Assembly (NCBI GenBank): GCA_011634665.1
Contig: WAEK01000013.1
Coordinates: 976,501 to 1,040,500 of the forward strand
Origin: Mortierella sp. BCC40632
Lineage: Eukaryota; Mortierellomycota; Mortierellomycetes; Mortierellales; Mortierellaceae
Length of the DNA stretch: 64,000 bases
Direction: 5' to 3'
The notes beneath the pieces are model-generated. The model worked only from the letters and a program-made list of their open reading frames with translations, was not told the origin of the DNA and did no database searches. The position numbers and the translations under genes are program-made. This document shows, in pieces, positions 39,201 to 64,000 of the stretch. Position 1 is the first letter of the stretch. Every line of letters begins with the position of its first letter.

Positions 39201-40485
39201 ATGGCATCCGCAAAGGACTCGCAGGCGGGACAGGCGCGCTATTATCATGACAAAAAGAGCTTTATCACCGCCCAGATACGGCTTCTTGAGGCTCCTGTTC
39301 AACTTGCCTCTGACTGGCGTCGCGGACGGCCAAGACTAAACGACAAAGGGGAAGAGCTAAACAGCATCCCAGACTCTGTGGTCTCTTCTGTGATGTCCAA
39401 GCGTGAGTATGCTCATTCTCCTCCTCTCTTGTATCTTTTCTCCAGACCTCTGCTTCTTACCCTTCTTGTTATTGATGTTGGTCTGCTCTGCTTCTCGGCC
39501 TGATCAATGGCGGGCTGGGTACCTGATGTTAGTACACTCGGCCACTCTCAAGTCCCAACGACTGTTATTCAACAATCAGTCTGTCAGGCAGCTCCTTGAA
39601 CAGCTTGAGGCCAACCAGTATGAATTGAGGCGCAAGGCTAGACAAGGCGGTATCATCATTCGGACCAAACCCAACGCGGAAATTCTAACCACAGACTGGA
39701 TCGATATGTTTCCAGTAACATGGGAGTATGGGCGGCGGCGCCACAGTGGATTGGACTCGGCACTATCTGTCTCTGCTTCCGAGGAATCAAACATATCAGT
39801 CGGCTTTGATGACTCTGTAGTGGATGAGACAAAGGCACAACAGTACGCAGAGATTAGATCCAAGGTTGTGGCACTACAAGAAAAGCATCAATCTTTACGG
39901 GACAAACATGACTATTACATGGTACTTTATTGTCGGCGTTCAATTTAGTATCAACCACTGGCGTTTGGAGCAGTAAGCATGCCTTGTTAACATTAAGACT
40001 CACAACACTCATAATTTAGACACTGAGGAGCGAGATCAGGAGATTAGATGATGGAGAGATCCAGAGAAATATCCTATCGCCCAACTCTCCCGTAATCAAA
40101 GAACTAGAGAAAATGAAGGAGCTATGTAGGTCACTCTTTTCATGTCTAGTATCATGCTTCTACTACTTTTGCTCACATAAAAGGATCAATTAACATGAGC
40201 GACCTTTGGACTTTTTACTCATCTAGTGCCTCGGCTCATCAGGGTTTTGAGCGTTAGGAAGAGCGCTATAATTGCCAAACGGAAATCTTTTTCTGACAAG
40301 GACAGCTCAGGTACCACATTAATACCCCGCTCTAAAATCGATTGTTCTGAGACCTTTTTTTTTTTAAAACCAACTAACACTGGTACTGGCACTGGCACAT
40401 TCAAAAAGACATTCTAGACCTTGGTAAACGTCCTCGATTAGAATCATCTAGTCCCTTGGATACTTTGAAGGACCTCTTGGATTAA
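39201..40485 (+). CDS. fta4: Fta4-like kinetochore protein (Sim4/CCAN complex), 5 exons
   Basis: Exons 39201-39402, 39533-39921, 40020-40125, 40227-40310 and 40418-40485 join in phase to 282 residues. The N-terminus (SFITAQIRLLEAPVQLASDWR) and the following helix (LLFNNQSVRQLLEQL) fit the pattern of the Fta4 family of fission yeast: F...QIRLL..P..P..DWR, then ...RVYS.QA..H.AEQI. That protein is part of the inner-kinetochore Mis6-Sim4 complex. The C-terminal half is coiled-coil-like (YAEIRSKVVALQEKHQSLRDK). Its last residues are basic then acidic (LGKRPRLESSSPLDTLKDLLD). Length is typical. The family call rests on pattern memory, so moderate confidence; the exon structure itself is well supported. 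Confidence 0.65.
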
Positions 40486-40782: not shown

Positions 40783-43156
40783 TCAAGATTGAGCATAGAA
40801 ATCATATGGCATACCTCTCATCATCTCATCCACGAGCAAAAAGTTGGTGGCAATGACAGACGCGTTCTGGATCATGTTACGGACAACTCTGTAGTTGTCC
40901 CAGATACCCTCTGCAGAAGGATCCAAGGTCTCTCCACTCTGAAGATCGACTCCAACAACATGTCCATCTTCGTATTCCTCCTGCATGGTCACAATGACGT
41001 CCATGGGGTCGAAGCCGCCGTTCGTGGCAAGGGTCTTGGGGATGACAAGGACACCCTCTGCAAACGATGTAATACCAGCCTTTACGCGGCCCTTGACGGT
41101 ATCCTTGAACTTGAGAAGGTGCGAATGCAATGCAACCTGGAAAGCACCTGCACCTGGTACTACCATACCGTCCTCCAATGCATTCTTAACGGCGCGCAGA
41201 CCATCACGAATGGCATCCTTTGTCTGGTGGATAGTGTGAGGGTTGGGACCTAATGTGGCAGAATATGGGCGTGTTAAATACGGATAAGCCTACCTCATGG
41301 CATGAACGCATTGAGTTTGTGGGGTTACGAGAATCATTCTTACCCTTGATCAAGATGGTGGCAGACATGGGGTCCTTGACATCCTCAACAAATGTGAACT
41401 TCTCCTCTCCCAAAGTGTGCTCATAGATCAATCCAGCATATCCCAAGACATCAGGAGAGAGATCGTCAACCGAGTTCTGAGCAATGCCTCCACAAATCAA
41501 CTGCATACGCTCCATGTTTCTTCTCTTGGCACGACGGAGAGCAAAGATGCCATTCTTTGCAAGGACATCGAGCGACAGGGGGTCGATACCCTTCTGGTTA
41601 ATGATCACGAATCCCTTTCCAGAGTCGCCGCAGACCTGCTTCTTCAGCTCGATGACCTTCTTAAGCTTCTCATCCACAAACTTGCGCTCCGACTCGACCA
41701 ACTTTGTGCGCTGTTCTGCTGAGCTGTAGAAGAATCCAGAGTTGATTTCGCTCTTCTCGTACTCCAACGACACATTGAGGGTGAGCACATATGCGTCCTT
41801 GACACGCTTGGGCATGTCGGGATGTCTCGCGCCGTGATCCATGACTAATCCACGAATGAGACGAGTATCGGTCTCGTTCTTGTGTTGCATCGCCATAATC
41901 TCTACCATGTGCAAATCAATGGGCTCGTTCTCGCGGTAGATGGTCAAGACTGCATCCACGACAGCCTCTGTGAGGGTATCGGCCAATGCGCGGTGGACCT
42001 TGGTGCGAAGTGACGTGCGAGCAACCGACATGAGTAGCTCTCGGTCGATCTCCTTCTTTACGGCAAAGGTGTCCAAAAACTGATTTTAAAAATAAAACAT
42101 AAAAGAGAGCGACAGAGTGAGTGAAAAGGTGAAGGAGGCAAAGGCAACCATCTAAATGCCAATCCATGCTCCTTTGGAGGAGATTATGAGTGAAAGCACC
42201 CTGTGGCTGCCCAGAATGGAGGCCTTCGAGACAGAGAACAACGTACGTTGAGTGACTCCTTCTTGGCGAGCTCAAATCCCTCTGTGATGATCCGGGGGTG
42301 AAGACCCTCAGAGATGTGACGCTCGGCCTGCTTCATGAACTCTCCTACAAGCATGACGATCGATGTGGTTCCGTCTCCGGTGATCTCGTCCTGAGCTGTC
42401 GCAGCACGAGCAATCATGGCGGCCGTGGGATTTTGGATTTGCTGTTACAAAAAAACGAATACGCCGACACGCCAACGTGACACGGGTCCAGAGGAAAAGC
42501 ATAGGATGGTAGAGAGGACAGTGAGTAAGGAAGCACATCCAGCGTTCTCTGTGGTCAAGAAAGAGCAGCACTCGGACATCAGATCAAAAGTCAAAAGATA
42601 CTCTTGAAAGAGTTCATACCATCTCGCTCAAAAGGACCTTTCCGTCTTTGGTCAGCTTGATATCACCAGCACCGCTGACCAACATCTTGATGGTTCCTTT
42701 GGGGCCGAGATTCGAGCGGACAACCTCCATCAAACCAACGGCGCCATTGATGTTCAACTGGAGGGCCTGTCCGCGACGGGCAACCTCTGAATTAGGGTTG
42801 ATAAGGGAAACTGCTGATCCGCCAGACCTATGGGATCAATGTGCAAGCAAAGGGCATTCTAATTTAGTCACAAAAGACTTTGGATGAACCTCCTTGATGG
42901 AGCTAGAGGGGATGGGATGGGGAAAAGCGGTAATGGCTGGTAGGGGCTGGAAGCATGTTGTGTCGTTTGCTGGATACATTAGCTCGTTGAGGTAAGGAAG
43001 CAGGACAAATGCCCTCTCTCAGAACTCAGAACTGATCCTGATGCGACAGATGTACTGATGCCGAGTTTGAGAAAAAGGGAAGGGCGCCAGTAGGGCGGAG
43101 ACTTGGACAAGAGGAGGGTAGGCCCAGGAATAGAGAGAGAGCGGCAGCACTTACAT
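40783..43156 (-). CDS. CCT6: TCP-1/CCT chaperonin subunit zeta
   Basis: Minus-strand exons: 43156-43155 (AT only, plus 5' UTR), 42827-42620, 42441-42247, 42079-41344 and 41249-40783, giving 535 residues, the normal CCT6 length. Marks include [20 protein letters not shown], the ATP-site [65 protein letters not shown] and the equatorial VVPGAG. The zeta-specific [12 protein letters not shown] and [11 protein letters not shown] separate it from other subunits. It is one of eight ring subunits of the cytosolic chaperonin that folds actin and tubulin. The start codon is interrupted: AT closes exon 1, a 327-nt intron follows (AT/GTAAGT to CATAG/G), and G opens exon 2, giving [13 protein letters not shown]. 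It is convergent with the Fta4-like gene. Confidence 0.95.
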
Positions 43157-45351: not shown

Positions 45352-48300
45352 ATGCGGCCGCCAACCAAGTACGAGGCTGCCTATGTCCAGCCTTCCAAGA
45401 GATCACCGAATCTACGGCTACGACCTCGGCGACGATCACTACTTGGGCGTCCTAGAGCGTAAGAACAATGTGGATCCACTCGGGATGATTTCGGACTCCC
45501 ATTTACCAGCTCATGGTCTTGTCTATCCAAGATCTAGTCCACGTTCTTCTAGGACCTTCCTATTTTTTCACTTTTTTAGCCCCCCTCTCGCTCCCCCTTC
45601 TACACACCCCTTGCAATAGCCAATGACGAGTGTCTCATTCTCTTTGGGTCAGATCAGTAGGAATGAGATGCCCTTGGCTCATTCTCAAAGGAGTTCGTCT
45701 GGCTTTTGTCTGTGGAGTGGACCATCCCAGCCTCCTCTGACCGAGCTGAGGTCTTGTTCCTTACCTGGCTCATCAACTGAACGTTTTAATTTATTTATTT
45801 GTTTGTTTGTTTGATTTTGCTGTCCTCAACTGACCTGCCGCCCATAGGAGTGTACCATTCGCAGCAGGATCACTTGGCTCGCAACAACGACCTGACGAGG
45901 ATAGCGCAGAAGATAGGATGATTGTGGCGCTTCGAGATCGGGCCTCATCCGACTCACAGACAGGAGTCCCAGTGCAACGCACTGTACAGGCATTGCAGGA
46001 ATACTTGATGGTGTTGGCGCCACAGAGGCTTCCATTTGAAATCCAGATGGCTTCGGGATGGGACACCGGTTACCCCCCAGAGGAGCTGGTTGGACTGATG
46101 CAAACAGCTGCTGGCAAGGGATGGCACACTCCTAGGTAACACCATGGCGCACAGCCGTTCTCTTTTGCTCTTTCTCCTCAAACACGGGCACGCCTCCGCT
46201 CTAACAATCAATCTGTGTAACAAAAATCTAAATGCTCCAACAGGTTCTGTTCCTACCCTCAGGATCTGGTCCTTCGGTTCTCATGTGGACACTCAAGAAT
46301 TCGAAAGATCCAACTCCTATCCCATCAGTATAAGATTGCAAGCAGGCTGGATTTTTGGATGGGCTCAAGGAAGGGCGTTCAGGCCGTCCGCACAGACCCC
46401 ACGGGATTAGGAAACACCCCTAATAATGACAGTAGACACCACTCAGCAGCTTATGGTGACGACGACAATTATGACGACGACTCTTTCCAAGCGCAGGACT
46501 TCCAGAAGCGTAGTCTGCCAGTTTTGCAGTTTCAAAAGCTTGGATCGATATCCTTTGATAGCAATGCGAGCTCCAACTACTCTGGACGAGAACTACGATC
46601 CATCAATGTCGACGTAGAAGGCGAATACCTAAGAGTGGTCATCCGACAGTGTCATGCAAACCCATTGAATATTTATCACCAGGTGGCTATCTTGGCCCTC
46701 AATGTGCTAGGAGAGCCTCTAGAAGGGGAACTCTTTGGGGAGTCTGAGAAACTCGGTTTTGATGAGGTAATCCACGAACTTCTATTAAATGAAAAACACT
46801 CACACGCCACACAAGGCAAACTACGTCTAATATAGCGAAATCTTCCTGCTCATCTAGTTTGAGGTCGTGAACGGACCAGGGCAAGGCCTATCGGACCATT
46901 CGTTGGCCAAGTCAGTCCCACCAATTCCAGAGACTACCGAAGAAGTCCCTGACATAACGGAAGCTGTTCACTCGCTATCCATTGCTGAAGTCAAGGAACA
47001 CCCGATAAAGTATATGGATCAGGAAATGGTGCGTTTAATCTCGGGATTCACTAAGGCAAAGCAGGATGCAGCAAAAGGTACGATTCCTCTAGTTCATTCG
47101 GACCCAATCACTACGACTGAGTAAGGTTAGAACGATACCCAAATACTCATGTATTTTCCTTACTTGAATACAATAGAGGAAGATTTCCAGGCAGCAAAGA
47201 GCTTCAAAACTGGAAGCGAGCATCTGACAAAGGTAGGACTCTTCAGTGTCATCACAAAAGCTATTCCCTCCTCTTCCACAATGAACCACTTTCAAAACAT
47301 TTAACACCTCTTTTAGTTTGCGGACGAAATTCAAGATATCGATATCAAGAAGCAGCAAGCAGTCAACAACGATGAGTTTGACACGGCACAGGATCTGAAG
47401 GTGCGTGTGCCATCTATTAGAAGATTTAATTTCGCCAATGCGCAAGGCTCTTACAGACTATACCATTTGTCCATGAATACCCTTCAACCAGATCAAAGTC
47501 TCCGAAGTCAAGGCAAGAATGTATGAATACTTCTCCCACAATGGCTTCTATTTCACCAACATGAAAGACACTATCATTGTCTCCCTGGAGGAACCAGAAA
47601 GGAACATACATGAAGACTCCTACAGAGAGCCTAACTCCCGACTGAGTGTAAGAAAACTTGTTGGAACTGTTGATTTGTCCCGAAATCTGTGAAAAATCGC
47701 CTGGACTAACAAGAAACTACTCTTTCTTCACTTACAACTACTATCTTTAGAGCTTTTCTCCTGGGAACACACTACATGGAGCCGATCGATCAACAATTCA
47801 TAGCAATAGTCAGAGCTTCAGTGGCCTTCGGAAACCATCTAGCCGGAGGAGCGCTCCCCCCTCTGTCGTCAACCAGAGCCTTGTTTCTTCAACAGCCAGC
47901 GACAATAGCTCTGATCCAGAAAGGCCAAAATCGGAGAGGTATAGCGGAAAGACAACAACTGTTCCCGGAAGACCCCAGTCTATGGGACTTGTGCGACAAA
48001 AGAGTGGTAGTTGGCAGACACGACATTCAACCACTTCCAACCAGTCAGCAGTACTTGGCACTGTCAGTGAAGGTATTCTAGGCCTCGTTGATGACACTCA
48101 GGATCTTATGGATGATTTGACAGAACAGGAGCGTAAGGATTTTGCAGGTCTCTTGGATGTATTCCCAGGGGGCGTTGTCTCGTGTCTCATTAGTCGTGAT
48201 ATCAACCTCCGACAGCGCGCTATCGAATATATCAAGGAACATTTGGAAAATGAGAGCTATGCTGATGATAATGAAGACCGCAATGATCCTGTAAGTATAA

Positions 48301-51300
48301 GCACATATCATTAGCTAATATCGCTTGCAAGTTACTTGGAATAACTTGGATCTTGATACTGACTATCTACTTCCCAATATGGTAAAAATATCTAGATAAT
48401 CCTGGCAAATGCAGTTTTCCAAGTCATAGCAATCACATTGCCAGACACTCGAGAGAAAGTGTTGATTATGGCTCTAGGCCTCCTTGACCAAGTTGTCAGT
48501 AAGTATCGATAAAGACTATAGTTCATCACCTTGTCATATTATTTTTCCTTCACTCACGTGGCGTCCGCCTTAAATCTAGGATTCTGCTCCCAGAGCGAGA
48601 TACCAAATGGATCGACATACCCTTCTCTGGAGCCTCTGATCCCACTGTTGCTTACCAAGGCAGGAGACATCAACGCCCGCGTGACACAGGCGACCACTAA
48701 TAAGATCGTGATGCTCTGCAACTGTTACAGAACACACCCATACTCAATCCTTCCTCTCATCTTCAAGCCGGCTCGAGGCACTGTACTGTATCGACAAGCG
48801 CAAGCCCGAGTTGATGTTGTTGCTCGATTGGTAGACGAATTCGGAGTTTATGATAGAGCCGCCGGAAAAGGAACCCCTGGTGGTCTCGAGTTCCAGGTAG
48901 GTTGAAGGTTTGGTCTGACATTCATTTCACACTTGCGAATTATTGTCTGAAAAACTGACTCATTTTAATTCTCTCCCATTGTCTCTCGACTCTTTGAAAC
49001 AGGATATTACCGAGTTTACTCTTCCATATCTTAGTCATACCAACAGCGAAGTTCGTGTAGCAGCACGCAAGCTCATTACCGATATCTGCAAGTTTTTAAA
49101 TAAGACACGGGTTGAGCAATTCTTGCCGGGAGTGAAGACGTTGATCGTCGAAGTAAGGCTGCTTTTACTTTTCTTTTTCTTTCGTTTGGCTCAGCCCATT
49201 GCTCTCGGGTTTGCAGTTCTATCTCTAACATTTGAGAACATATGTTTTTTAGAGTATCCAAAAGGAATTAGAGGGCAAGAGACCAGAACGAAGCGCTAGT
49301 ATCCCATTGCCTTCATCAGCCCGTACCCTCTCTAAATCGTCATCAGCATCAGATGTAACAACTCGTGTAAACCTGAGTGGGCCAAACAGTTCCAGGCGGC
49401 GACAAGTCCCTGCATCCCTTGGAGTGAACCTTCACGTCGATTCACTTAAGAGTCTTCTTAAAGAGTCTGATGTTCCTGCTTCACCTGGTCTCTCCAAGTC
49501 CAGTCGCCAGAGTTCACGGCAACGCTCCGACGCAGCGATTGCTCACCAGGCTCGCTTAAGAATGCCCCTGAAGTCCTCTATCAGGGCGGCTCAAGATGTA
49601 TATTCAGGTATATTTGATATTATAGATATACCAAAGATCTACGATTGGCGACTTTTGCGTGTGCTAAACTATCGCTTTTTTGTCCCCTAATCATAGGAAT
49701 ACCAAAATCGATGGTCAAGAGGCAGGCTACTCTATCGCCAGACGATGAAAATGACTCTACAGCCTCGGAAGAAATCAGGGTAGGTTGCCACTCTGCCATT
49801 CTATCGATGTCAACATGCGAAGTATACCTGTCTTCTTTCCTAACAGGCTCTAAATTTCGTCTACATTAGACTTCCTTTTCTCAGACTTCTTCTCAGGCTA
49901 CCTCGAAAACAGCTGTACGCCCATCACAACTAAGGTCCAGGACATCATCATCCGTATCTGGAAGAGCAACTGCCCCAAAGCAGACCTCTTCAGCCGTTGG
50001 CAATGGCCTTGGAGACCAGCGCTTAGGAAGCGACACACACAAAACAACTGCTGAGAACCTAGCTCAAACTAAAAAGGATCGGTTCTGTGTGTTCTGTGAT
50101 GAACAGAACAACAGTTTTACCGATGAAGCTTTGGTGACCCATTACTGGAATGACTGCGCGATGCTAGCGAACTGTCCGCATTGCAAGATTGTAGGTCACG
50201 ACAATGCCTCCCCGCTTGGCGGTCCTCCAGCGCTTTTTTTGTTTCGTTTCGCTTTGTTCCGCTTTCTCCCTAAGTACGCTCGCTGATATTGGCAACTCAT
50301 CTGTCTTACCGCAATACTGGGAATTTGTATAGATCATCGAGGTCCCCACCCTATCGGAACACATGCTGAATGACTGTCCCAAAAAGAAGTTTGTGAGGCA
50401 GTGTGAACAGTGTCAAGAGGTTATGGAAGCGGATGCGTTCCTGGCCCATGTAGCTGCAGGATGCATTGGTAAGGAAATCATGGTTTTCTATGCTTTGTCT
50501 TCCAGCTTCAACGACTTCTTTGTTTGCACATTGTTTAACCGCAGCCTTCATCTTTGCCCTTCCCCCCCTTCACTACTGCTACCATTTCTCCCTATGTCTA
50601 TTCATTATCGGCCCGCGGTTGCGCTGAATTAGCCCATTCCCCTGACACTGCCAGATGCCCACTATGCCTTCTCATTTTACCTAATAATGAGGAGTCAACA
50701 TGGAAACAACACCTTACACAAGGAGCGGGATGTCCAAAGAGTAAAAAATCTTTGGCAAGGATTCAAAAACAGCGCCCTTCAGCCGTGTCGCGATATAGCT
50801 CATCCAGTTTGCAAATGCGTCAAAGGTCACCTCACCGACAACAAACACCCAAGATTGACACCTCCAAGGCAACTATTAGTGGTTCCGCCCGTGGGTTTGG
50901 ACTTGGCTTGAAGCAACAACAAGTACCTCTTTCACCAACCTCCCCACTGTCATCCTCTTCTTCTTCATCGACTCGTATGGAGCGTAATGCCCGATACAGA
51001 GGAAGCAGTGGTACTCATGTATCCACGACCGTCTCACCAGCATCGTCCACAAACTCATCAGCTATGATTGAGAAGTCGAGTATACCTTCAGGAAGGTCTG
51101 CACCTACATCAGCCTCCCATACAACAACGACAATGACAATGATGACCAGTACATACTCGACAACGTCCTCGTCCACTTTGAACAACAGCTACAGCCAGGG
51201 TAACAGCAATAGCCTTCTCTCGCCCTTGACTTCAGCCTCAACGCCCAGCTCTACCAGCCGAAGGAATGTTTCGAGTCATGGAAACTATGACCACCTCCAA

Positions 51301-51576
51301 CATACTACCAATCACAACAATAGCAGCTATCATGAGTTGCCTACCCAAATTTATGCCCCAAGAGCCAAATCGGCTAGCAGTAGTAGTCTTTTAGCAAGGC
51401 CATTGCATCTACTTCAACAGCAGGAATCTATTCATCCTCTAGATCCAGCACCTCCTGTTGTTGCAGCGGCATCACCGCATATTGGTCAAAGCGGAACGCC
51501 TTCGCAGGCTGCCAATGGGGGAACCAGTCGTATCCCGAAACTTGGTACCTACCGATCGTCTTCAACCGTTTGCTAA
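45352..51576 (+). CDS. CEP104: CEP104-like microtubule plus-end protein, 16 exons
   Basis: Sixteen exons join in phase to 1,460 residues: 45352-45458, 45848-46135, 46244-46766, 46858-47077, 47177-47232, 47317-47400, 47492-47647, 47751-48290, 48396-48498, 48580-48896, 49003-49152, 49253-49607, 49697-49779, 49870-50190, 50333-50468 and 50633-51576. The domain order matches animal CEP104 and Chlamydomonas FAP256. A jelly-roll starts near residue 90 (GKGWHTPRFCSYPQDLVLRF, IRKIQLLSHQYKIASRLDFW). Coiled coils lie at about 340-440, a TOG tubulin-binding array at about 640-830, and four zinc modules at about 1085-1190 (FCVFCDEQ...HYWNDC, CPHC, CEQC, CPLC...GAGC). A Ser-rich C-terminus ends in an SxIP-type EB1 motif (TSRIPKLG). 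CEP104 works at growing microtubule and cilium tips. The extra length is Ser/Thr-rich linker and a basic N-terminal extension. Confidence 0.9.
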
Positions 51577-52973: not shown

Positions 52974-55325
52974 TTATAGAACTCTATGTTGAATAGTCTC
53001 GGTATAGATGGATTGTAGTTGTTCCTGACCTAGACTTTGGACATATTCACTGGCTCGTAAATGCTTCTCATCACCATACTTCTCCGCCAACACTGGATGT
53101 GTCTCATCTGGCTTCTCTAACATCGTCAAGAGTATACGAATCCCGGGCAACAGACTCTCTTCCGAATACCCGGCCAGCTCTTCATGTTCCTCATTCCATT
53201 CGCCTCGGAAGAGTAGCTTCATCGACAGACAATAGCCAATCGCTGCAATCATACTTGAGCGCATGCCAATAAATTGGTGGTCGCAAAGTGAGACATCGAT
53301 CAAGTACTTGGCCAACGTTCGAATATCAACGTCGTAATTGTCTGCACGAGAGATCCGTCGAAGGAAGCTAAGTGGTCCGGGAGCACTCATTTCATAGTCA
53401 AGTGCTCTCAGCATTCGGATTTCTGCCTCACGCACGATGACCGGAGTATAGATGCCACTTCCAAGGAACACCAAGTCAGCGATTGCTGGTGATTGGATCT
53501 CTTCAAACTTGGAGGCAAGTAGTAGAGCTACCATTCCAACCAGTTGAAATTGATCAACTGGGACAGTAACTTTGGAAAGGAACCGGTCGAGATAGTTGAC
53601 ACAAAGATGAAGGGTCTCCTGCAAGAGCTCGAACCGGTCGTGGACCTGAATAAGCCATTCAATCAGACGGACGCGAAAGGGCCATGTAAGCTCGCTTTGT
53701 CGATCCATATAGCTCGGGTCAGCCATCAATTTGACCTATTACATACAGTGTGACAATAGTCATAGTGAATAAAGAAGTTGGTTTGTTTCGGACACAGAAT
53801 AAATGGTAGGGAGGGGGGGGGAGGGCAAACGCAGGAAACAAGAGTAAAAATGAAATACCTCAATCTCTCGCTTGTATGCGAAAATGGACGATTGGTATTC
53901 CGAGACAAGAACTGGGTCCCGATCAAAGTCATTGCTGGTGAGAGGCTCGTCTAGGTCCATATCAACCTTGGTATAGGAGTCTTGCTCAGCTCGCATCGGC
54001 GAGAGATGCCTGCTTTTGATCGAGTCTGATTCCACGGTTCTTTGAGCGCTTTCGTTCATGACAGTGACGGGAGGAACAGCACTTCTATATTGTTGGTCAG
54101 GCCCTTTCTCAGACCTTCGTGCTGGCCCTTTACATTGGATCACTGTTCGCTGCTGTTGCAGTTCGATTGCATTCCCTTGTTTAAGGTCGTGTTGAGCTCG
54201 AAGAACAGCTTGCTTCATCTTTTCCTTGTTCTTTATGGGCCTCTGGATAGTCGTTCTTTGTATTGAACATGTGGCAACAGAGTGCTTGTGAGTGGGTCCC
54301 AGAATATGTTGTCTCTGTACAGGGACAGAGGCCGTCGTTGCTGCCGAGGATTTTGCCGGAGCTGGTATCTTTGGTTCCTTTACTGTAGCATTGTTAGCCT
54401 TTTGTTCAGAAGACTCTTTGTATGTGGTGATCTTCCCAGCACGGATGCCTGTGAACGTTCTAGAAGTCTGATGAGATGCATTGGGTATCAATGGTGTCAG
54501 TAATCGAGTAGATGTCGACGGAGATGTGTATCTAGCAAGGGTTAGCCAGGTCGCTTACAGGGGCTGCGGTCTGGAGAGGGGTAGGTCTGATGGTGGTAGA
54601 GGTAACAGGAGGCTTCTTGATCAAAGCCTGAGTCGATGAGGATACCCTTGTGGTGTGTAGATGCAATGGGCGATGCTGGGTTGATCTTTGTTGTTTCTCT
54701 TGCACATGTTGATGTCGATGCTGTTTTTGGATTGATATGGGGTTGGTGCTGGGAAGACGTTGTGAAGAATGAGGCGATGGCTCACAAGACCCTGCTTTGT
54801 TTGCGCCGCCCACTCGGGACGAGTGTGGGACGTTACGCTGCTACCATAGCCACAGAGTAAGGTACAGCAGGTGTTAGGAAAAAAAAAAATAAAAAATAAA
54901 AAATAACGGACCATGGTAGTTTCCGAGTTGAAGGGTCTTACTCCGATGTTGGTAATCTCTTGGAGAGGGATATGGCTGATATCGCTTCGTTGGCGCCTTG
55001 GAGGAATGGTGTTAGCTTTGGCGAACGTCCTTGTGGGGGCAACAGAGATGGTCATCCTGGGATTAGGCTTGATATTATCCCCTTGGCTCGCGTGGGTTTC
55101 AACGGACTTCCGAGTCCAGCGCACGTTCTTTTGGGTGGAACCAGGGGCGGAATTTTCGTCTCCTACCCTCGGTTTCGTATCGGACAAGGAAGTGCTCGCC
55201 ATCATGGCGGTCATCGAGAGCAACGAATTGCTCTGTCTCTTCGGATGCAATCGAGCCGAGCTGCCGTATGACCCAGAATGCTCCGTTCGGCCACGCGCCA
55301 GAGCAATGCCTGGACGTAGAGTCAT
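52974..55325 (-). CDS. B-type (mitotic) cyclin, 4 exons
   Basis: Minus-strand exons 55325-54942, 54837-54559, 54467-53859 and 53735-52974, all in phase 0, give 677 residues. Residues from about 430 form a double cyclin fold of the Clb/Cdc13 class: YMDRQSELTWPFRVRLIEWL, LCVNYLDRFLS, LVGMVALLLASKFEEI, then FLRRISRADNYDVDIRTLAKYL. It should bind and activate a Cdk1-type kinase to drive mitosis. The roughly 430-residue N-terminal region is basic and disordered. It contains ISHIPLQEITN, which keeps the L..I.N half of a destruction box but has His where Arg is expected. I found no RxxL or KEN elsewhere in this region. The third exon's acceptor (54468) was chosen because the nearer AG would leave a 27-nt intron and break the frame. 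Confidence 0.9.
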
Positions 55326-55789: not shown

Positions 55790-58700
55790 CTACACAAAAA
55801 TGTCTCCGTCATAGCCCTGGCCTAGACTGCTAACAGTGCAGACGGGAGTCGAGGGACGGTAGTCACTCAGGAACTGACGCCATTCTTGACCGAGGAGCCA
55901 GTGCAGCCTTGTCTGAGATGTTGACGAAGGTAAGGGCGACTGGATTCCTTCTCTTCTCTCGCTCAGCTCTAGCCAAAGCGAGACATCCTGGTTTGTGTCG
56001 CATTCTGACAATAGTAGCTCTGAGAGCGAGTGTTGCACTTGTCGGTGGAATCGTGCATCCAGAGTTGATATGGTCCTAAGAAATCTGAGAAACGACACGA
56101 GGAAGCTCAAGACGGCCCAGTGTTGCTTTGTCAGGCCTTGTACTAGAGATGACTCTCCCAGCATCTTCTGAGAGCCTTCTGGTGCGAACGGGTCACCAAG
56201 CCAAGTTGAGGCATCAGGCATCTGCTGCGACTCCCTTACAGGAGAAAGCGCTTGAATGTGGCTTCGGACCATCTCTGTGAGAGAATGTAGATGTCCTTGT
56301 CCTGACAGGAACTCGCTAAAGGAAGACTCAAGTGACACTACATCAGTTGCTCCCGAGATGCGGTCTTCCAGCAATGCATGCTCTAGCATAAATGCATCAC
56401 CAACTCTATCTCGTGCAGGCTGCCTTTCACCGTCCACCAATAATGTATCCTGGTTCTCCTCACCCGTTCCTCCCGTGGGCCTGTTGCCTAAGCGACGTAG
56501 AAGCAAGAGGCCATGGTCCATCGCAAACTGTGCTAGTTCCAAAAATGCGTCCCTCCAGGCTGAGTTTTGATTATCTATCAAAAGAGGTACCATATTTTAG
56601 ACTCCAGGTCGCGTACCAGTTTTTCAAGTACCACCAATACAAAAAGAGAACTTACAAAACCTCGCTTGCTCTGTCTGTAATTTGCGGGTTGTCCGGCATA
56701 AAGCTTCTATCACATACAGCACCTGGCCAAACACATAGAGTGCTCTCGTGGCCCCTTTGTCCTCTTCTGAAGGCATCAGCACCTGTGGGTTATTAAAAGT
56801 ATGCTTGTGCTGACTTTGGTAGAGACATTCTCTCATCCTATCGAGCCATGACGAGTGGGCAATCTCGTAGGTCCCAGAGAGACACCGAAGCAGTGGATAA
56901 AAAAGAGTTGACGTCTCTTTCTGGAGTTGATCATATGCAACTAATACAAGAGGAGTAGGTGGGGTATCGCTGGATCTCTTTGTATAGTCCGTCACAAACG
57001 ATAGCTCTGTGTTCAAAACATCGAACAAACTAGTCAGCCATCGGGAAGCAGGCACGGCGAGAGTCATCAGATAGGAGCGGTATCCCGTTACCACACTTGT
57101 ATCATTCGAAAAGTCAACCATGGATGGTCCGGTGTCTCGGCCGTTTGGATCCAAGAAGGCTGTGAGTAGGGGTCCAAATATTGACACAAATGTCATTGTC
57201 CTGAAAGAACTCAAGACAGGGTTCCTATTCAAAATAACATCAGTGTTTCGTCAATCATAGGCTGAATAGTGGGTGCTACGGTCATAAGTATAAAACGAGC
57301 AGCATAGACGAACCATTGCTTTTTGTTTTCGGTTTCGAGAGCCGAATTCCGGAGTGAGCTTGTCAGAACCCATAGAGAGTCTTGGCGGTTCATTCTCAAG
57401 TCCTTTATGTGTTGATTCGCCACAAGTGTCTGGATGGAGGCCTTTGTGTTTGCCCGATTGTCAGTTGATGCGAGTGGACCAAGCATTGTACGAGAAGTCT
57501 CTGCCATGGGAAGGTTTGAAGTGTCTTTTCCTTGAACAAGCGTTTTTGATCCATTGACTATCATGTCACTGTCGGTTGCAGATGGGGGATATCTGTACAC
57601 CACTGTCTCCCTATCCGTGATGAGCACATTGATCCCAAGCGTATCGCCCTTGGACACTACGCCAAGTGACTTGTTGACATTTGGTCTAGCAGTATCTTCA
57701 TTTCCCTGACCAAAAGTAAATTGAAAGTTATCCAGACCCCGAACGAGCTTCAGATGGCTCATTAATGTGTCCAGAAGGTCATGAAAGAAATGGCGTTCTC
57801 CTGCATGAAACAAGTATGCGTAACCTCGTATTTTTTGATGCACATAAACCCCATCCCTAGTAGTAGTGAAAGGCGAAGAAAATAGTGGTGCCAACATGGT
57901 TAATAATGAGAGCTTTCAGAGTTAGCATAGGTAGCATTGAGCAATATAGAACAGAGAATATGACTTACATTTGGGGTTGGGGGAACATTCGGGACGAAGT
58001 AAGAAAATTCAGGACGGAGTGAGGCGTTCCTGTAAGTTGCGATCCTTGTAATAGGATGCCACAGTGTTGAATGACATGGCCAACAACATGGTGAGCGAGC
58101 TTCACATGCTGAAGATTCTCTCGTACCATTTGCCTCGCATTCAGTCGCTACAGGTAGAGTATTGCCCAATGATCTTGTTAGAGTCTCATATTTGTTTAGA
58201 GCAGTTTCTCGAAGAATCAGACATACCTCATAGTCTCTCTTAATCTGATTAAGTATAATGCCAAGGTAGTTTTGATATCGTGACTTGAGAAGGTGTGACT
58301 TGTTGAGCACTGACTGATTCACAGCACCGGCCGAAGGTCGCGCTTTCAGATAGTGGTTGCCAATATTACTCAATACTCTCGCAAGGACCTGTAGTCTTGC
58401 CTCCTTGAACTCGCGTAATAATTGAATGTCTTTTCCAGTATCCTGTAATGTCTGACCAATAAATTCGTTTGGTTGACTCACGGCATCCGCTGGTCTCATC
58501 AGAGTATCATAATCCTGGTGTGCGATAGGGAGGTCGTTAAATAGATACTCGAACACTGAGCTCTCAGAGGGTGGTTGTATGTTGCGCCCAAAGCTCGATA
58601 TGTTGTTAGGACAAACGCTAATACCAGACTCAGCCTTTGGAAGGAAGAGCTGAAGGATGGAAAGCAAGAGTCGATGCTGGACAGTCAATTCGTGTGTTGG

Positions 58701-61700
58701 GATGGAGATTGTGCTGAACCAGATATTTAGAAACCGATCTTCCTGTTCATGCATCATCCATGGTGAGGACTCTGCTATGTGTGTTGCCCAAAGAAGTTCG
58801 TCCGAGAGCCGGCAATGCTGAAGCCAAGGACTGTGCCATGTTTCTCGCTTAAATATACTTGATACTTGTGTAAAAGTAGCTTTCCCTTGCTGAATTATTA
58901 CCAAACAACAGTCAGCGAAGGCGTTTATGATACGCCGAATGCCGTGTTGTGACATTGAATCCGAAAAAATAATCTTATTCCGTGAGATAGGATCGACCGT
59001 GTGACGACTTTGATTCGTGCTAGTCTTGAACCCCAGCGGGCTTTGTGCGAGTCCTCCTGGAATTGTCGACATTGCCTGTTTATGCTGCTCTTCATGTACT
59101 GCTTGCTGATGTTCATTTATCAAAGCCTCTAGCTTGGGGTAAACCCACATCTGAAGCACTTCTACCAAGGTATCGTCCTGAGGCAGGGTGCGCGGAATAT
59201 TGATGCGTCTTGATGAGGTCTCGGTGGTGACTGGCTGCTGATCCCTTTCTTCCGGAAAAGTACTTTCGGATAGCTGAGATAAGTCTGTAAAGTCATTCTC
59301 GTCAAACGTAAACTGATCAAACTCAAGAGAAGAGAAGCCATCATCTGCAGAGTCTTTTAGGTGTGAATCGTTTCTGTGCTGGTCGACAATGACGGTATTT
59401 GGTGCCTCGGTTTGAGTTTCGGAGCAAATATCCGTGGTTTCCGCATGGTAATCACTCAGACAGCGCTTTCTGAGTGTTAGGAAATTCTCCACAACACCAA
59501 GCGCACTTAAGCGGATTTCTGAAGGATACAGAGTTCCAGTGCTGAGAAATTGACCTAGGCCTAGAGTGGAAGAGTTTGTAAATAGTCTGCATCCGGATAG
59601 TACAAATTCATAAACAACAACAACTAGTGGTACTGGTTACTCACGTTCGTCTAGAAAAGAAATCACTGGGAATTTTTCAGCTGTGCTCGAGGCCATTTCA
59701 ACTCCATTTAAAAGCAGCCGATGAATAGAATTCAGCACTGTCTCGATAAGCGAGGATACTGGTGATCGACGATCTCTGCGACGGATGTAGCCAGTCTCAT
59801 CGCCAGTCGATTTCACATTGGCTTCTACTAGAGAGCCTAAGAACGAAAGGCGATCAAATAGGTAATCAAGGATTGATTCTAGGGGCCGTCCTTGCGGTGC
59901 CCTCATTTCTTGGTGCCCTTTCTGACTCTGCCAGACCAGTCCAAGGTAGAAGACAGACTCGAGTAATATCCTCCTTGATGCATCGTCACTCTCATCAAAA
60001 TTGAGCAAGCTTCGAAGCTGACCAACAGTAGACGGGCGTATCGAATCTGGAACCAAAAGGGCTATTATAAGCACTAGATTGCAAGGATTGCAGAGCGAGG
60101 AGTAACTTCGATCGCTCGAATTTGTCGAAAATGTAGCTACAATCACAGGCGATAGCGAAGAAAGCAGCCGTTTGCAGACCTTAATCTGTTCAAATCTGGA
60201 GAGCAAATGGAATGGCGACGCGAGATTGGGCGCTATGACTAGCTTGCTCGACTGAGGAGTCGCGTTTGGGGTCTGTGGTTCTGATCCAGAAAAATAATCT
60301 CCTTGGTTGATCCGATCCACTTGATACCGAAGGGTAATAGCCAAAACTTTTAGAGCAATTTCGAAGCATCGATCATGCGAATCCAGGGTCTCAGCATAAG
60401 CCATGTTAGGGTGAAACCCGGTTCTACTTGGCACTGCATTTCCGCTGTTATCCATTGGCGAGGCAATCTCTGTTATCATGCGCTTCAAAAACTCTGGTAG
60501 ACGAAATCCAGGCTCCGTAGGCATATCGCGGAAATCACGTCCAGCAAAGAGTTTGAAGATATATGTTAAGACATCGACATTAGGCTCCCAACCCCAGGCT
60601 TGGATGCGGTTATGAATGAATGTCAGGAGCCAACGAAACTGCCGCTCGTCTGAGGATTGGTCAGACAGGAGACCCGACAGCCAACCCTTTTGAAGCGCCC
60701 ATAGTACTAGGTCCCAGTTCTCGGGGGCCTGGATGGTTTTGTTAGAGCTACCGTCCGTTTCGAACTGGTGGAGACGACAGAGACAGATCATTAGGGCTAA
60801 ATAGTGACTCGCCCTATCTCCATCGATCAAGTCGCATCCTGTGCTACTGTTATCAGCGACTTTGGCGTGAAGTTGAGTAATTTGACTGTTGAAAAGGCTC
60901 CAAAAAGAAGGCAATGACTGTCCATGCTGCAACACTCGAATAAAGCAGACCCAGACTTCAATCAGGTCTTGGTCGTAAATAGCGCCTTGGGATCTACGGG
61001 TAACTTCCTCCATTTGGGCAACCTGCTGAAGGAGGTGAGTATCGCTAGCTTCCACAAGCAAGCCCATAAGAGATTCGGTAGCTTTGTGGAGAGAGCAAGT
61101 TTCATCGGTAATGTGGTTGCGAATCATCACGTTCCAAGTGACGATCGACCACTGGATCCACATATTTAGCGACCATCGCAATGAAGGATATTTCGAGTCC
61201 TTCAAGCCCTCAGCGATCTCAGTCAAGGGATTTACCACTACTGACTTAAGAATTTCCCATGACTCAGCTAGCTGTTCCTGTGATCGATCCGCTATAAGCT
61301 TAGCAATAAGTCGTGTAATGCCCTCGAGAGCATGAAGGCATTCGTTACGACAGCGCTTTGCTCCCCTCAACTGGTCCAAAGTACAGGCAGTTTGCAATCC
61401 AAGGTCGAGAGCTGGAAGCCTCTTCGTAAACTCCGCTATGATAGAGTCTAGTCCTTGCTTTATCCATGCCGAGTTATCGCTCTCTAGTCGAAGAGGCTGG
61501 TCGAATAATAAAATATCCGATGGTAGCCTTGAGGAGATAAATGAATCTGTGGCTTCCATGTTCATAGCATTTAGTATGACGGATAGCATTCCTTGTCCAA
61601 TATAGGTATCCCGTGAAAAGTAGAGTCCGCCTGGAATGCTTGTCTCTGACTGGAAATCCAAGTCCTTGCCACCCGATGTTTTCAAGCGGTTGGTGGTAAT

Positions 61701-64000
61701 GACGGATATTGTGTTCGACGACGAGGTTTTGGGGACCATGTTTCTTATTTGTCCTGAAGATGCTGTGTCTGGAGCAGGATGAAACTCGCCTTGGAAATCT
61801 TCCCAAGGTTGCTCGGGTATAGTATCAATCAAATTGCCATCTTCAACGTTGAGGTTTGATACTTGGGTGGGATATGGCTCGAGAGATGTGTCGGCATGAC
61901 GGTGGGCTTTCTTTGTGTGAGGTTGTGGCACGAACGTAGGTTTGTTAACCAACTGGGGACGGCTTGGTCCAGATATTCTTTGGCTCCATTCCGTCAATTG
62001 TGACTGTATAGTGATACTTTTTGCCTTTGGTGGTGGTCTTGATTGCTTTTGGACTCTCAAAGATGACCCTCCAAGTTTCTGTTGTACATCAGGTCTAGGT
62101 GCCCATTGACGAGGACGCCGACGATTTGCAGGGATGACTCTGGAGCGGTATATAGTTCGATTCTTATGAGGTCGATTCCGTATCTCCCTGGCCCTGGCTT
62201 TGGTGAATTGTGTTCGGTTACTCGAGGTCAAATTGTTGCGATCGACATACTGCCTAAAATGTTGTAGGCCAAGGTCTTCATAATAACTCTCTGCGTCCAT
62301 GAAATCACTGTCCGCTCCGCTTTCATCAAGATGTGCGGGAAAGGCGGTTGAATTGTTGGTAGTTGTCCATCGTCTTTTCTTGGCTGTTCCTATGTTCCCA
62401 TCGGGCCTCGTGCCCTTGGAAATATCAGATGAATCACTCGAGGCTCCAGAGTAGTCAATATTGGATGTATTATACTCTAGGGGCTGGTTTCGCGAGGCCC
62501 ATTTTGAGATTTGTGCTCTTGAGCGTGAGCGTCGTGAGGGGTTATCCGACTCAACCTATGTCAATTAATAGATAGGGGTCAAAAAAAAAAAAAAAAAAAA
62601 AGCTGAGTAAATGCTATTAAGTGAGCGAATGGGTCCAGCACTACGATTGCGGGCACAGAAATGTACTTACACCTCTGGAAACATATTCTTCAGATGCCTC
62701 GGTATCCGTCGGAATAGGGCGAGAGCTTTTGCGGTCAGATGATCGTACAACTAAGCGGTCGATAAATGATTCTCTTGAATACGAGGATGTCTTTCGTACC
62801 GGTCTCGGATCCATGGTTTCTTCAAACACATCCATGTTATCCACGAGATCTTCATCACTCTCATCTCCATCTTCAGCCAGCTGAGCCATGAAGCTGTTCA
62901 GTGCGTCGCCATCACGATGACTTGACACGAGTCTCGTCTTGGCGTGGTGTGCATGATCCTGCCTGTCTAACTCCAGGGGTCTATCCAGTGACTCAGGTAG
63001 TCCTTTCCTAGAGCTCCATTCTTTAGACCGAAGCGATCTCAGGGTGCCAGCATCGTCGGGAAGGAGATTTTTCTTGAAAAAAGCTGCTGGTAGGACATGT
63101 TGTCGGTGTCGCCTCGCCTTTTTAGTCTGTGGTTCGTAGTGGAAAGTAGATTGCTCCGATGCTGACTTATCATGGTCGCTATTGTTATCCTGGCCTTCTG
63201 GAGTGGACGAAGGCTGTTGTTGCTCACGGGTGCTTTGATATCCATCACCTAGCACAGAAGTTACGTTTTGGCTGTGTTTTGGAAATCGCATCCCTTCTGG
63301 TATAGCATCAATAGGTTCTAAAGGCTCAACAGACTGGTTCACAAGTCGCTCCAGTTTCCGTTTGGTCCTTGGGTTCAGTTGAGGATGTAAACGAACCTTC
63401 AACAAAGGTCGCGATACACCTCGCTCTGTTGATTTTGTTAAAGATTGTTTCCTCAACTGCTGTGGACCCCTCAGGTCGCTATCCAACAGTTTATCGTTAT
63501 CGAATTCCTGAGAGAACATTTCACTATGGATTGTGTGAAATACGGTTTCCATGTCCGTTGGTGGATCGTCATGTATAACATCCAAGGACTGGGTGACGTT
63601 AGGTGCTAGTAAGTGGTCATCTTCCTCCTCATATTCAGAGTCATCGTCGTTGTCCTTGGAGTATTTCCCTGCATGGAATCGTTCTGGGGCAACCCTGCCT
63701 CGGATTAATCGTGCATGCTGTTGTTTGTCCGCAGTGTATGGTTTTTGTTGCTGAAAGGTACGCGCGCGCAACGGGTAGGATCGAACTGTTCCTACAAAAG
63801 GTAAAATTTCCTTCGGAATCTCGTAGCCGGTTGTAGTTGAATCCAAGAGAGAATCTGAGTGGCTCCCTAGTTCCCCGTCCCTGAGTCGGATCTCCTCAGG
63901 AGACGTAGCACGAATGGATGAGGAGGTAGAGTCAATCCCGCGTGCTCTGTCTGACAAGATCTGTATGTTGGATGATTCATCTATAACGTCACAGGTGGAA
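55790..64000 (-). CDS. mus7: Mus7/Mms22-like replication-fork repair protein (N-terminus beyond window)
   Basis: Minus-strand exons: 64000-62671 (frame open at the right edge), 62555-59645, 59560-57969, 57912-56656 and 56574-55790. Together they give about 2,600 residues. Near the N-terminus, PLRARTFQQQKPYTADK (about 63770-63710) resembles the 'LR.R...Q..PY..DK..Y' motif of fungal Mus7/Mms22. GGLYFSRDTYIGQGMLSVIL opens a long helical region, as expected for this scaffold. Mms22 works with Rtt101-Mms1 ubiquitin ligase to rescue stalled forks. Intron joins are in phase (115, 84, 56 and 81 nt), except that the exon 57912-56656 changes frame at the 4-base run at 57231-57234. One extra T there on the coding strand restores one continuous frame. 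That is probably a sequencing or assembly indel, otherwise a disabling mutation. Family call is by size and motif. Confidence 0.75.

What the first reader, a model, noticed from the sequence alone, without database searches (positions are those of the whole stretch)
45352..51576. Full-length CEP104/FAP256-type ciliary-tip protein in what looks like a non-flagellated fungus
Reading across 16 phase-consistent exons gives jelly-roll, coiled coils, TOG array, four zinc modules and a C-terminal SxIP motif in the order of animal CEP104. CEP104/FAP256 is known as a cilium/flagellum tip and plus-end factor. If this genome belongs to a terrestrial, flagellum-less lineage, an intact gene means the protein has a cilium-independent job, such as hyphal microtubule tip dynamics. 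If the organism is zoosporic, the gene is expected and instead informs taxonomy.
Basis: partly seen in the sequence, partly recalled or inferred. Interest (0 to 1): 0.75.

Follow-up and report, generated by a model that had tools for sequence, protein, structure and literature searches.

The report
Cilium-tip protein kept without cilia
A soil fungus that shows no sign of a flagellum carries a complete gene for CEP104, a protein known mainly from the tips of cilia, and related moulds keep it too, so the protein probably has a second, cilium-free job on microtubules that could be tested directly.

Summary
Window 45352-51576 (+) is an intact 16-exon gene for a 1460-residue CEP104/FAP256: jelly roll, coiled coil, one TOG domain (not an array), four C2HC zinc modules with all 16 ligands, and an SRIP (SxIP) motif near the C-terminus. 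The organism is close to Lunasporangiospora (Mortierellaceae; 79% identity), a non-flagellated lineage. Its 49.9-Mb genome shows one dynein heavy chain locus (cytoplasmic dynein 1), only alpha-, beta- and gamma-type tubulins, two EB1-type loci, and no match to IFT57, IFT81, SAS-6, Tcp10/CPAP or radial-spoke-3 models (no eukaryotic control for these absences). The gene is not peculiar to this species: 43 named Mortierellaceae and 49 Mucorales-type proteins were recovered, ten Mucorales species having records on separate branches; the tree fits vertical descent. All 87 fungal sequences readable there carry Arg where human CEP104 has V493, whose mutation to Asp impairs tubulin binding. Best reading: CEP104 was kept after flagellum loss as a cytoplasmic or spindle microtubule end factor with an altered TOG surface. 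Shown: gene, family, distribution, conservation. Inferred: function. No paper in the held library names CEP104 together with Mortierella, Mucor or Rhizopus; protein databases already hold such proteins, a few named CEP104.

The parts
45352..45458 (+). exon 1, start codon and N-terminal extension MRPP...RRRSLLGR
   Evidence: covered in 28 of 43 Mortierellaceae proteins; similar MRP... starts in P0006, P0013, P0017
45848..46135 (+). exon 2; jelly roll begins about 46020
46244..46766 (+). exon 3; rest of the jelly roll, with a variable insert (residues about 176-220)
   Evidence: CEP104_N Pfam match, best stretch residues 221-288
46858..47077 (+). exon 4; linker and start of the coiled coil
   Evidence: helix positions by alignment to the model of P0029
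47177..47232 (+). exon 5; coiled coil
47317..47400 (+). exon 6; coiled coil
47492..47647 (+). exon 7; end of the coiled coil
47751..48290 (+). exon 8; Ser-rich linker, then start of the TOG domain (about 48132)
48396..48498 (+). exon 9; TOG; codon 48450-48452 is Arg677, at the place of human V493
   Evidence: alignments to crystal sequences
48580..48896 (+). exon 10; TOG
49003..49152 (+). exon 11; end of the TOG (Pfam match ends about 49074); Arg816 is at the place of human R626
49253..49607 (+). exon 12; Ser-rich linker
49697..49779 (+). exon 13; linker
49870..50190 (+). exon 14; linker, first zinc module and the two Cys of the second (from about 50086)
50333..50468 (+). exon 15; rest of the second and all of the third zinc module
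50633..51576 (+). exon 16; fourth zinc module (to about 50733), Ser-rich tail of 280 residues, stop codon
51526..51537 (+). SRIP (SxIP, EB-binding type) motif near the C-terminus
   Evidence: SRIP at the tail end of 20 of 27 Mortierellaceae proteins with a complete last zinc module

Best explanation
The gene is a true, intact CEP104 that Mortierellaceae and Mucorales inherited from a flagellated ancestor and kept after the flagellum was lost. It most likely works as a cytoplasmic (and perhaps spindle) microtubule plus-end factor. The SRIP motif brings it to EB1 on growing ends. The coiled coil dimerises it. The TOG domain sits at protofilament ends and slows or blocks growth. The jelly roll and zinc array hold partner proteins. 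Shown here: intact gene, family membership, distribution, conservation of zinc ligands and SRIP, presence of EB1-type loci, no sign of an axoneme in the families searched. Inferred: plus-end localisation, effect on growth, site in the cell.
For: Three CEP104-specific Pfam domains in order. An AlphaFold model of a Mortierella relative (P0029) has solved CEP104 TOG domains as its top three fold matches, TM by target 0.78-0.79. Domains are constrained and linkers drift: mean identity of the window protein to other Mortierellaceae is 88 and 90% in the two jelly-roll parts, 65% in TOG, 66% in the zinc array, 47% in the coiled coil, 25-54% in insert and linkers. All 16 zinc ligands are the same in 25 of 25 Mortierellaceae and 41 of 41 Mucorales-type proteins that have all 16 positions (of 43 and 49), and in 17 of 20 animals. 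SRIP ends 20 of 27 complete Mortierellaceae tails that otherwise vary. Two EB1 C-terminal domains are in the genome. Single locus here; ten Mucorales species have records on separate branches. The tree puts Mortierellaceae and Mucorales together, SH-aLRT 96, apart from animals. Human CEP104 is recruited by EB3 through SxIP and needs its TOG to block plus ends (PMC12170345, passages).
Against: No expression, localisation or mutant data. Two of the three human residues tested for tubulin contact differ (W448 to I, V493 to R), so plain tubulin binding cannot be assumed. In Mucorales 0 of 43 proteins with a complete last zinc module have S/TxIP in the tail (13 of 49 have an SxIP elsewhere), so EB1 recruitment is not shared by all; 7 of 27 complete Mortierellaceae tails lack SRIP. 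The animal partners CSPP1 and ARMC9 gave no match, so the animal tip complex may be missing, though these searches have no eukaryotic control.
Confidence: 0.62

Rival explanations
1. CEP104 works at the spindle pole body or another organising centre rather than on free plus ends: its zinc array and jelly roll anchor or cap microtubules there, a leftover of its role at the distal end of centrioles.
For: In animals CEP104 sits at distal centriole ends and its zinc array binds CP110 and Nek1 (PMC6406257, PMC5222566, passages). The zinc array is, with the jelly roll, the part most like animals: 38% identity against 35-38% for jelly roll and 21% for TOG. Mucorales lack the tail SxIP yet keep the zinc ligands.
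Against: SRIP is kept in 20 of 27 complete Mortierellaceae tails, which points to EB1 and plus ends. SAS-6_N and Tcp10_C gave no match, so no centriole is in evidence. CP110 was not searched.
Confidence: 0.22
2. The gene is a decaying relic without function.
For: Two TOG contact residues are changed and known partners were not found.
Against: No frame break in 16 exons. Conserved domains against fast linkers. Zinc ligands kept in 25 of 25 Mortierellaceae and 41 of 41 Mucorales-type proteins with all positions filled. Extra copies in Mucorales.
Confidence: 0.03
3. Mortierellaceae have a cryptic flagellated stage and the gene does its usual ciliary job.
For: CEP104 belongs to a ciliary phylogenetic cluster (PMC10425847, passages).
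Against: One dynein heavy chain locus only; it matches cytoplasmic dynein 1 at 2.2e-122 against 2.7e-48 for dynein 2 and 2.6e-44 for the best axonemal chain. No match to IFT57, IFT81_CH, SAS-6_N, Tcp10_C, Radial_spoke_3, with the control limits named in the report.
Confidence: 0.02
4. The gene came by horizontal transfer or is contamination from a ciliated eukaryote.
For: None found.
Against: It lies on a 1.48-Mb contig of the genome. The tree shows Mortierellaceae and Mucorales as sister clades apart from animals. The protein is 79% identical to that of Lunasporangiospora.
Confidence: 0.01

Closest known systems
CEP104 of animals / FAP256 of Chlamydomonas (Pfam PF21038, PF21040, PF21039)
   Same: Domain order jelly roll, coiled coil, single TOG, four C2HC zinc modules; all 16 zinc ligands; human R626 kept; SxIP near the C-terminus, as the human SKIP motif (PMC12170345, passages).
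   Different: No cilium in evidence. W448 and V493 equivalents are I and R. Long Ser-rich linkers, an insert in the jelly roll, and a 280-residue tail. CSPP1 and ARMC9 models gave no match. The 22 animal rows in my alignment (mostly birds) have no SxIP at all, so that motif varies in animals too.
CEP104 proteins of other Mortierellaceae (e.g. Lunasporangiospora selenospora P0001, Entomortierella parvispora P0017 named CEP104)
   Same: Orthologues over the domains, with SRIP in 20 of 27 complete tails.
   Different: Sequence drift; several database models are partial or end early.
CEP104-like proteins of Mucorales (e.g. Lichtheimia 'flagellar associated protein' P0047, Mucor ambiguus 'centrosomal protein of 104 kDa-like' P0064)
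   Same: The same three Pfam domains in most; zinc ligands kept; Arg at the V493 position in 49 of 49.
   Different: Shorter; no S/TxIP in the tail in 43 of 43 with a complete last zinc module; ten species have two or more records on separate branches.
XMAP215/Stu2 and CLASP TOG proteins
   Same: TOG fold.
   Different: Those are known for TOG arrays and have no jelly roll or C2HC array (recalled); their fold matches are weaker than CEP104's.

Membership tests
CEP104/FAP256 | N-terminal jelly roll (CEP104_N) | tested here: met
   8.7e-37; chains of the IFT25/27 complex are the first non-TOG fold matches of the relative's model, APC10 lower in the list
CEP104/FAP256 | Single TOG domain of CEP104 type | tested here: met
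   1.4e-35; 5lph and 5jo8 best fold matches
CEP104/FAP256 | Array of four C2HC zinc modules | tested here: met
   2.8e-30; 5lpi 1.9e-23; 16 of 16 ligands in the window protein
CEP104/FAP256 | Coiled coil between jelly roll and TOG | tested here: met
   Confident long helices at P0029 residues 278-359, aligned to window residues 361-442; dimerisation not tested
CEP104/FAP256 | SxIP motif for EB proteins | tested here: met
   SRIP at 51526-51537, in 20 of 27 complete relatives' tails; actual EB1 binding not tested; motif absent from the 22 animal rows
CEP104/FAP256 | Tubulin-contact residues W448, V493, R626 of the human TOG | tested here: inconclusive
   R626 kept as R816; V493 is R677; W448 is I629
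CEP104/FAP256 | Location at ciliary tip or centriole end | not testable with these tools
   No cilium is expected in this organism
Ciliated organism (full ciliary gene set) | Dynein 2 and axonemal dynein heavy chains | tested here: not met
   One Dynein_heavy locus, cytoplasmic dynein 1
Ciliated organism (full ciliary gene set) | IFT-B proteins | tested here: not met
   IFT57 and IFT81_CH no match; no eukaryotic control, so absence is not proved
Ciliated organism (full ciliary gene set) | Centriole and axoneme parts (SAS-6, CPAP, radial spoke 3) | tested here: not met
   No match; nothing rang in any control genome, so absence is not proved
Ciliated organism (full ciliary gene set) | Delta- or epsilon-tubulin | tested here: not met
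   8 matches, read as 6 genes: 3 alpha, 2 beta, 1 gamma; one alpha and the gamma checked against solved structures
Ciliated organism (full ciliary gene set) | BBSome | not tested

The most novel reading that the evidence does not exclude
Mortierellaceae and Mucorales carry a cilium-free CEP104 subfamily kept for hundreds of millions of years after flagellum loss. Its TOG surface was rewired (human V493 position fixed as Arg), which gives it a new way of acting on microtubule ends; Mucorales then dropped the EB1 motif and multiplied the gene. The ciliary-tip module would thus have a cytoplasmic life of its own.
Probability: 0.4. Interest if true: 0.75.

Novelty: new variant of a known kind. Interest (0 to 1): 0.6.

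Why it matters
CEP104 is treated as a ciliary gene; one profiling study places it in a ciliary cluster (PMC10425847, passages). Lineages without cilia that keep it intact, and in Mucorales multiply it, isolate whatever CEP104 does for ordinary microtubules. That turns the question of cilium-independent CEP104 functions, and of how ciliary parts are reused after cilium loss, into a gene-deletion experiment in culturable fungi. It also warns against reading CEP104 as a marker of a flagellated stage. The general idea is not new: others note that some typical ciliary genes persist in cilium-lacking species (PMC4736243, passages) and raise moonlighting of flagellar proteins in fungi (PMC13358043, passages).

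Tried and rejected
TOG array: rejected, one TOG only. Horizontal transfer, contamination, relic gene, and cryptic flagellum: see rivals. The first AlphaFold job (10 sequences) was poor, mean pLDDT 42.9, and was not used; the second (77 sequences) gave 68.4, with jelly roll, coiled coil and TOG mostly above 85. The model is of P0029, a relative, because the spliced window protein is not a plain frame of the DNA; P0029 lacks most of the zinc array. Paper searches returned unrelated papers. dN/dS was not computed: no nucleotide sequence of a relative's gene was at hand. No chytrid CEP104 came up in the three protein searches, each of which scored only the roughly 8000 candidates sharing most words, so absence of a group from the hits means nothing, and I could not tell whether V493-to-R came before or after flagellum loss. 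Glomeromycotina, Umbelopsis, Zoopagomycota and Dikarya were likewise not seen and are not excluded. The supplement of the 2026 fungal flagellum atlas (PMC13358043) could not be read; its main text does not name CEP104.

Full report
WHAT IS THERE. I rebuilt the gene from the raw sequence by following splice sites and frames. Pfam finds the three CEP104 models in order: CEP104_N (8.7e-37), CEP104-like_TOG at 606-822 (1.4e-35) and CEP104_ZnF at 1067-1175 (2.8e-30). Among solved structures only three distinct sequences match at 0.001, all CEP104: zinc array 5lpi (1.9e-23), TOG 5lph (2.4e-6) and 5jo8 (1.3e-4).

IS THE MODEL RIGHT. The first protein search (residues 90-1190) gave 43 proteins, 41 of them with a name, all named ones from genera of Mortierellaceae (family recalled for all but Lunasporangiospora, which one search confirms); the best, P0001 of Lunasporangiospora selenospora, is 79% identical over the whole query part. 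I aligned the window protein with all 121 proteins of the three searches: 43 named Mortierellaceae, 49 Mucorales-type (47 named, 2 unnamed that I placed there), 22 animals and 7 others. Several of the named records are strains of one species. Fifteen of 16 exons are covered at 70% or more in at least 28 of 43 Mortierellaceae proteins; exon 16 in 6 of 43, since the tail varies and many database models stop early. The start MRP... recurs in relatives.

WHOSE GENOME. The window lies on contig C13 (1.48 Mb) of a 49.9-Mb assembly in 62 contigs. By this protein it is a close relative of Lunasporangiospora. Published work places flagellum loss at the base of Zoopagomycota + Mucoromycota + Dikarya (PMC8371127, passages), and an Olpidium study dates the common ancestor of non-flagellated fungi to about 661 Ma (PMC7865070, passages). 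[quoted passage not shown]

IS THERE A CILIUM. The genome holds one Dynein_heavy locus; its open frame matches cytoplasmic dynein 1 at 2.2e-122, against 2.7e-48 for dynein 2 and 2.6e-44 for the best axonemal chain. The tubulin search gave 8 matches, which I read as 6 genes, two of them split in two matches by an intron: one matches gamma-tubulin, one alpha, and the rest read as two more alpha and two beta from their frames (my reading). IFT57, SAS-6_N, IFT81_CH, Tcp10_C and Radial_spoke_3 gave no match. For all but IFT57 nothing rang in the tool's 14 control genomes either, and the control genomes that it names are prokaryotes, so each absence alone is weak. The method did find CEP104_ZnF, dynein, tubulin and EB1 in this genome. 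BBS genes were not searched. The sum fits a fungus without cilia.

HOW WIDE. A profile of ten Mortierellaceae proteins gave 48 proteins and reached two Mucorales (Backusella, Lichtheimia) and P0048, whose code suggests Corallochytrium. A profile of these three gave 79 proteins, among them the Mucorales set, animal CEP104 and the alga Coccomyxa. Ten species have records on separate branches: Backusella circina, Rhizopus arrhizus, Rhizopus stolonifer, Choanephora cucurbitarum, Sporodiniella umbellata, Mucor plumbeus, Absidia repens, Apophysomyces sp. BC1021, Apophysomyces ossiformis and Radiomyces spectabilis; for some the records may come from different assemblies. A quick maximum-likelihood tree (SH-aLRT only, no bootstrap) of 72 of the 122 sequences (window, 15 of 43 Mortierellaceae, 47 of 49 Mucorales-type, 7 of 22 animals, 2 of 7 others; jelly roll, TOG and zinc columns only) gives Mortierellaceae (100) and Mucorales (99) as sister groups (96), apart from animals. 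Branches to the outgroups are long and the tool warns of it, so the deep root is unsure. In this genome both CEP104_ZnF matches lie in the window gene, so it is a single locus.

CONSTRAINT. Mean identity of the window protein to other Mortierellaceae, P0001 left out: jelly roll 88 and 90%, TOG 65%, zinc array 66%, coiled coil 47%; insert and linkers 25-54%; tail 36% (7 proteins). The 16 zinc ligands are identical in 25 of 25 Mortierellaceae and 41 of 41 Mucorales-type proteins with all 16 positions filled (of 43 and 49), in 17 of 20 animals and 5 of 5 others. SRIP stands near the end of 20 of 27 Mortierellaceae proteins with a complete last zinc module, followed by K in 19; the 7 without it are five Linnemannia records, Haplosporangium gracile and Podila epigama. 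In Mucorales 0 of 43 proteins with a complete last zinc module have S/TxIP in the tail (13 of 49 have SxIP elsewhere), and none of the 22 animal rows (mostly birds) has SxIP at all, so the motif is not a constant of the family.

TOG SURFACE. In human CEP104, V493D and R626A severely and W448A mildly impair tubulin binding (PMC5222566, passages). I mapped these by the numbering of the crystal construct. R626 is kept (R816; R in 41 of 41 Mortierellaceae with a residue there; in Mucorales R 36, K 7, Q 6). V493 is Arg in 38 of 38 Mortierellaceae and 49 of 49 Mucorales-type proteins readable there, V in 21 and I in 1 of 22 animals, V in 5 of 7 others; the two other Arg are P0007 and P0010, unnamed proteins about 55% identical to the window protein. 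W448 is never Trp in the fungi. Three alignments to the crystal sequences put Arg on V493. Whether this breaks, keeps or changes tubulin binding cannot be told from sequence.

STRUCTURE. The AlphaFold model of P0029 on 77 sequences has a confident jelly roll, coiled coil and TOG, mean pLDDT 68.4 overall. The top three fold matches are CEP104 TOG domains (TM by target 0.78-0.79), followed by chains of the IFT25/27 complex, which I take to be the jelly roll's match. The alignment contained animal CEP104 rows, so this is support, not an independent proof.

HOW IT PROBABLY WORKS. In reconstitution, human CEP104 is brought to microtubules by EB3 via SxIP, blocks plus ends through its TOG, binds CSPP1 and CCDC66 through the jelly roll and TOGARAM1 through the zinc array (PMC12170345, passages). 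The Mortierellaceae protein has each of these modules, and the genome has two EB1-type loci. CSPP1_C and ARMC9_ARM gave no match, so partners may differ. I therefore favour an EB1-recruited factor that restrains microtubule plus ends in hyphae or the spindle. The spindle-pole alternative is open.

IS IT IN PRINT. Full-text searches of the held library, which lacks most subscription papers, for CEP104 with Mortierella, Mucor or Rhizopus gave 0 papers each; with chytrid 2 papers, one of which names cep104 as a ciliary tip gene in a choanoflagellate (PMC10530576, passages). Of 34 papers holding at least two of CEP104, FAP256 and fungi, 20 were listed; I saw passages of five of them. The 2026 atlas of fungal flagellar proteins says 132 of 342 orthogroups also occur in non-flagellated fungi, but its main text does not name CEP104 (abstract and passages); its supplement may. 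So the presence may be listed somewhere; I found no discussion of it. Databases already carry such proteins, a few under CEP104-like names.

VERDICT.

Noticed in passing
window 48450-48452 and relatives: Arg at the human V493 position of the TOG in 38 of 38 readable Mortierellaceae and 49 of 49 Mucorales-type CEP104 proteins, against V/I in animals; whether chytrids have it is unknown.
   Followed up: partly
P0046-P0095: Ten Mucorales species have two or more CEP104-type records on separate branches; none of 43 with a complete last zinc module has S/TxIP in the tail.
   Followed up: partly
P0055 (labelled Rhizopus stolonifer): Groups with Blakeslea and Choanephora rather than with Rhizopus in the tree; perhaps a mislabelled or mixed record.
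   Followed up: no
window 52977-53735 (-): Cyclin gene stretch, N- and C-terminal cyclin domains, beyond the CEP104 gene on the other strand.
   Followed up: no
window 39394-39945 (+): Match to the kinetochore Fta4/CENP-50 family, 4.2e-6.
   Followed up: no
window 57903-62555 (-): Mus7/MMS22-type gene in two long open stretches.
   Followed up: no
window 41207-42085 (-): TCP-1/cpn60 chaperonin stretch.
   Followed up: no
G000:C2:1209373-1209825 (L007): An alpha-tubulin that looks more divergent than the two others (L008, L010), judged by eye.
   Followed up: no
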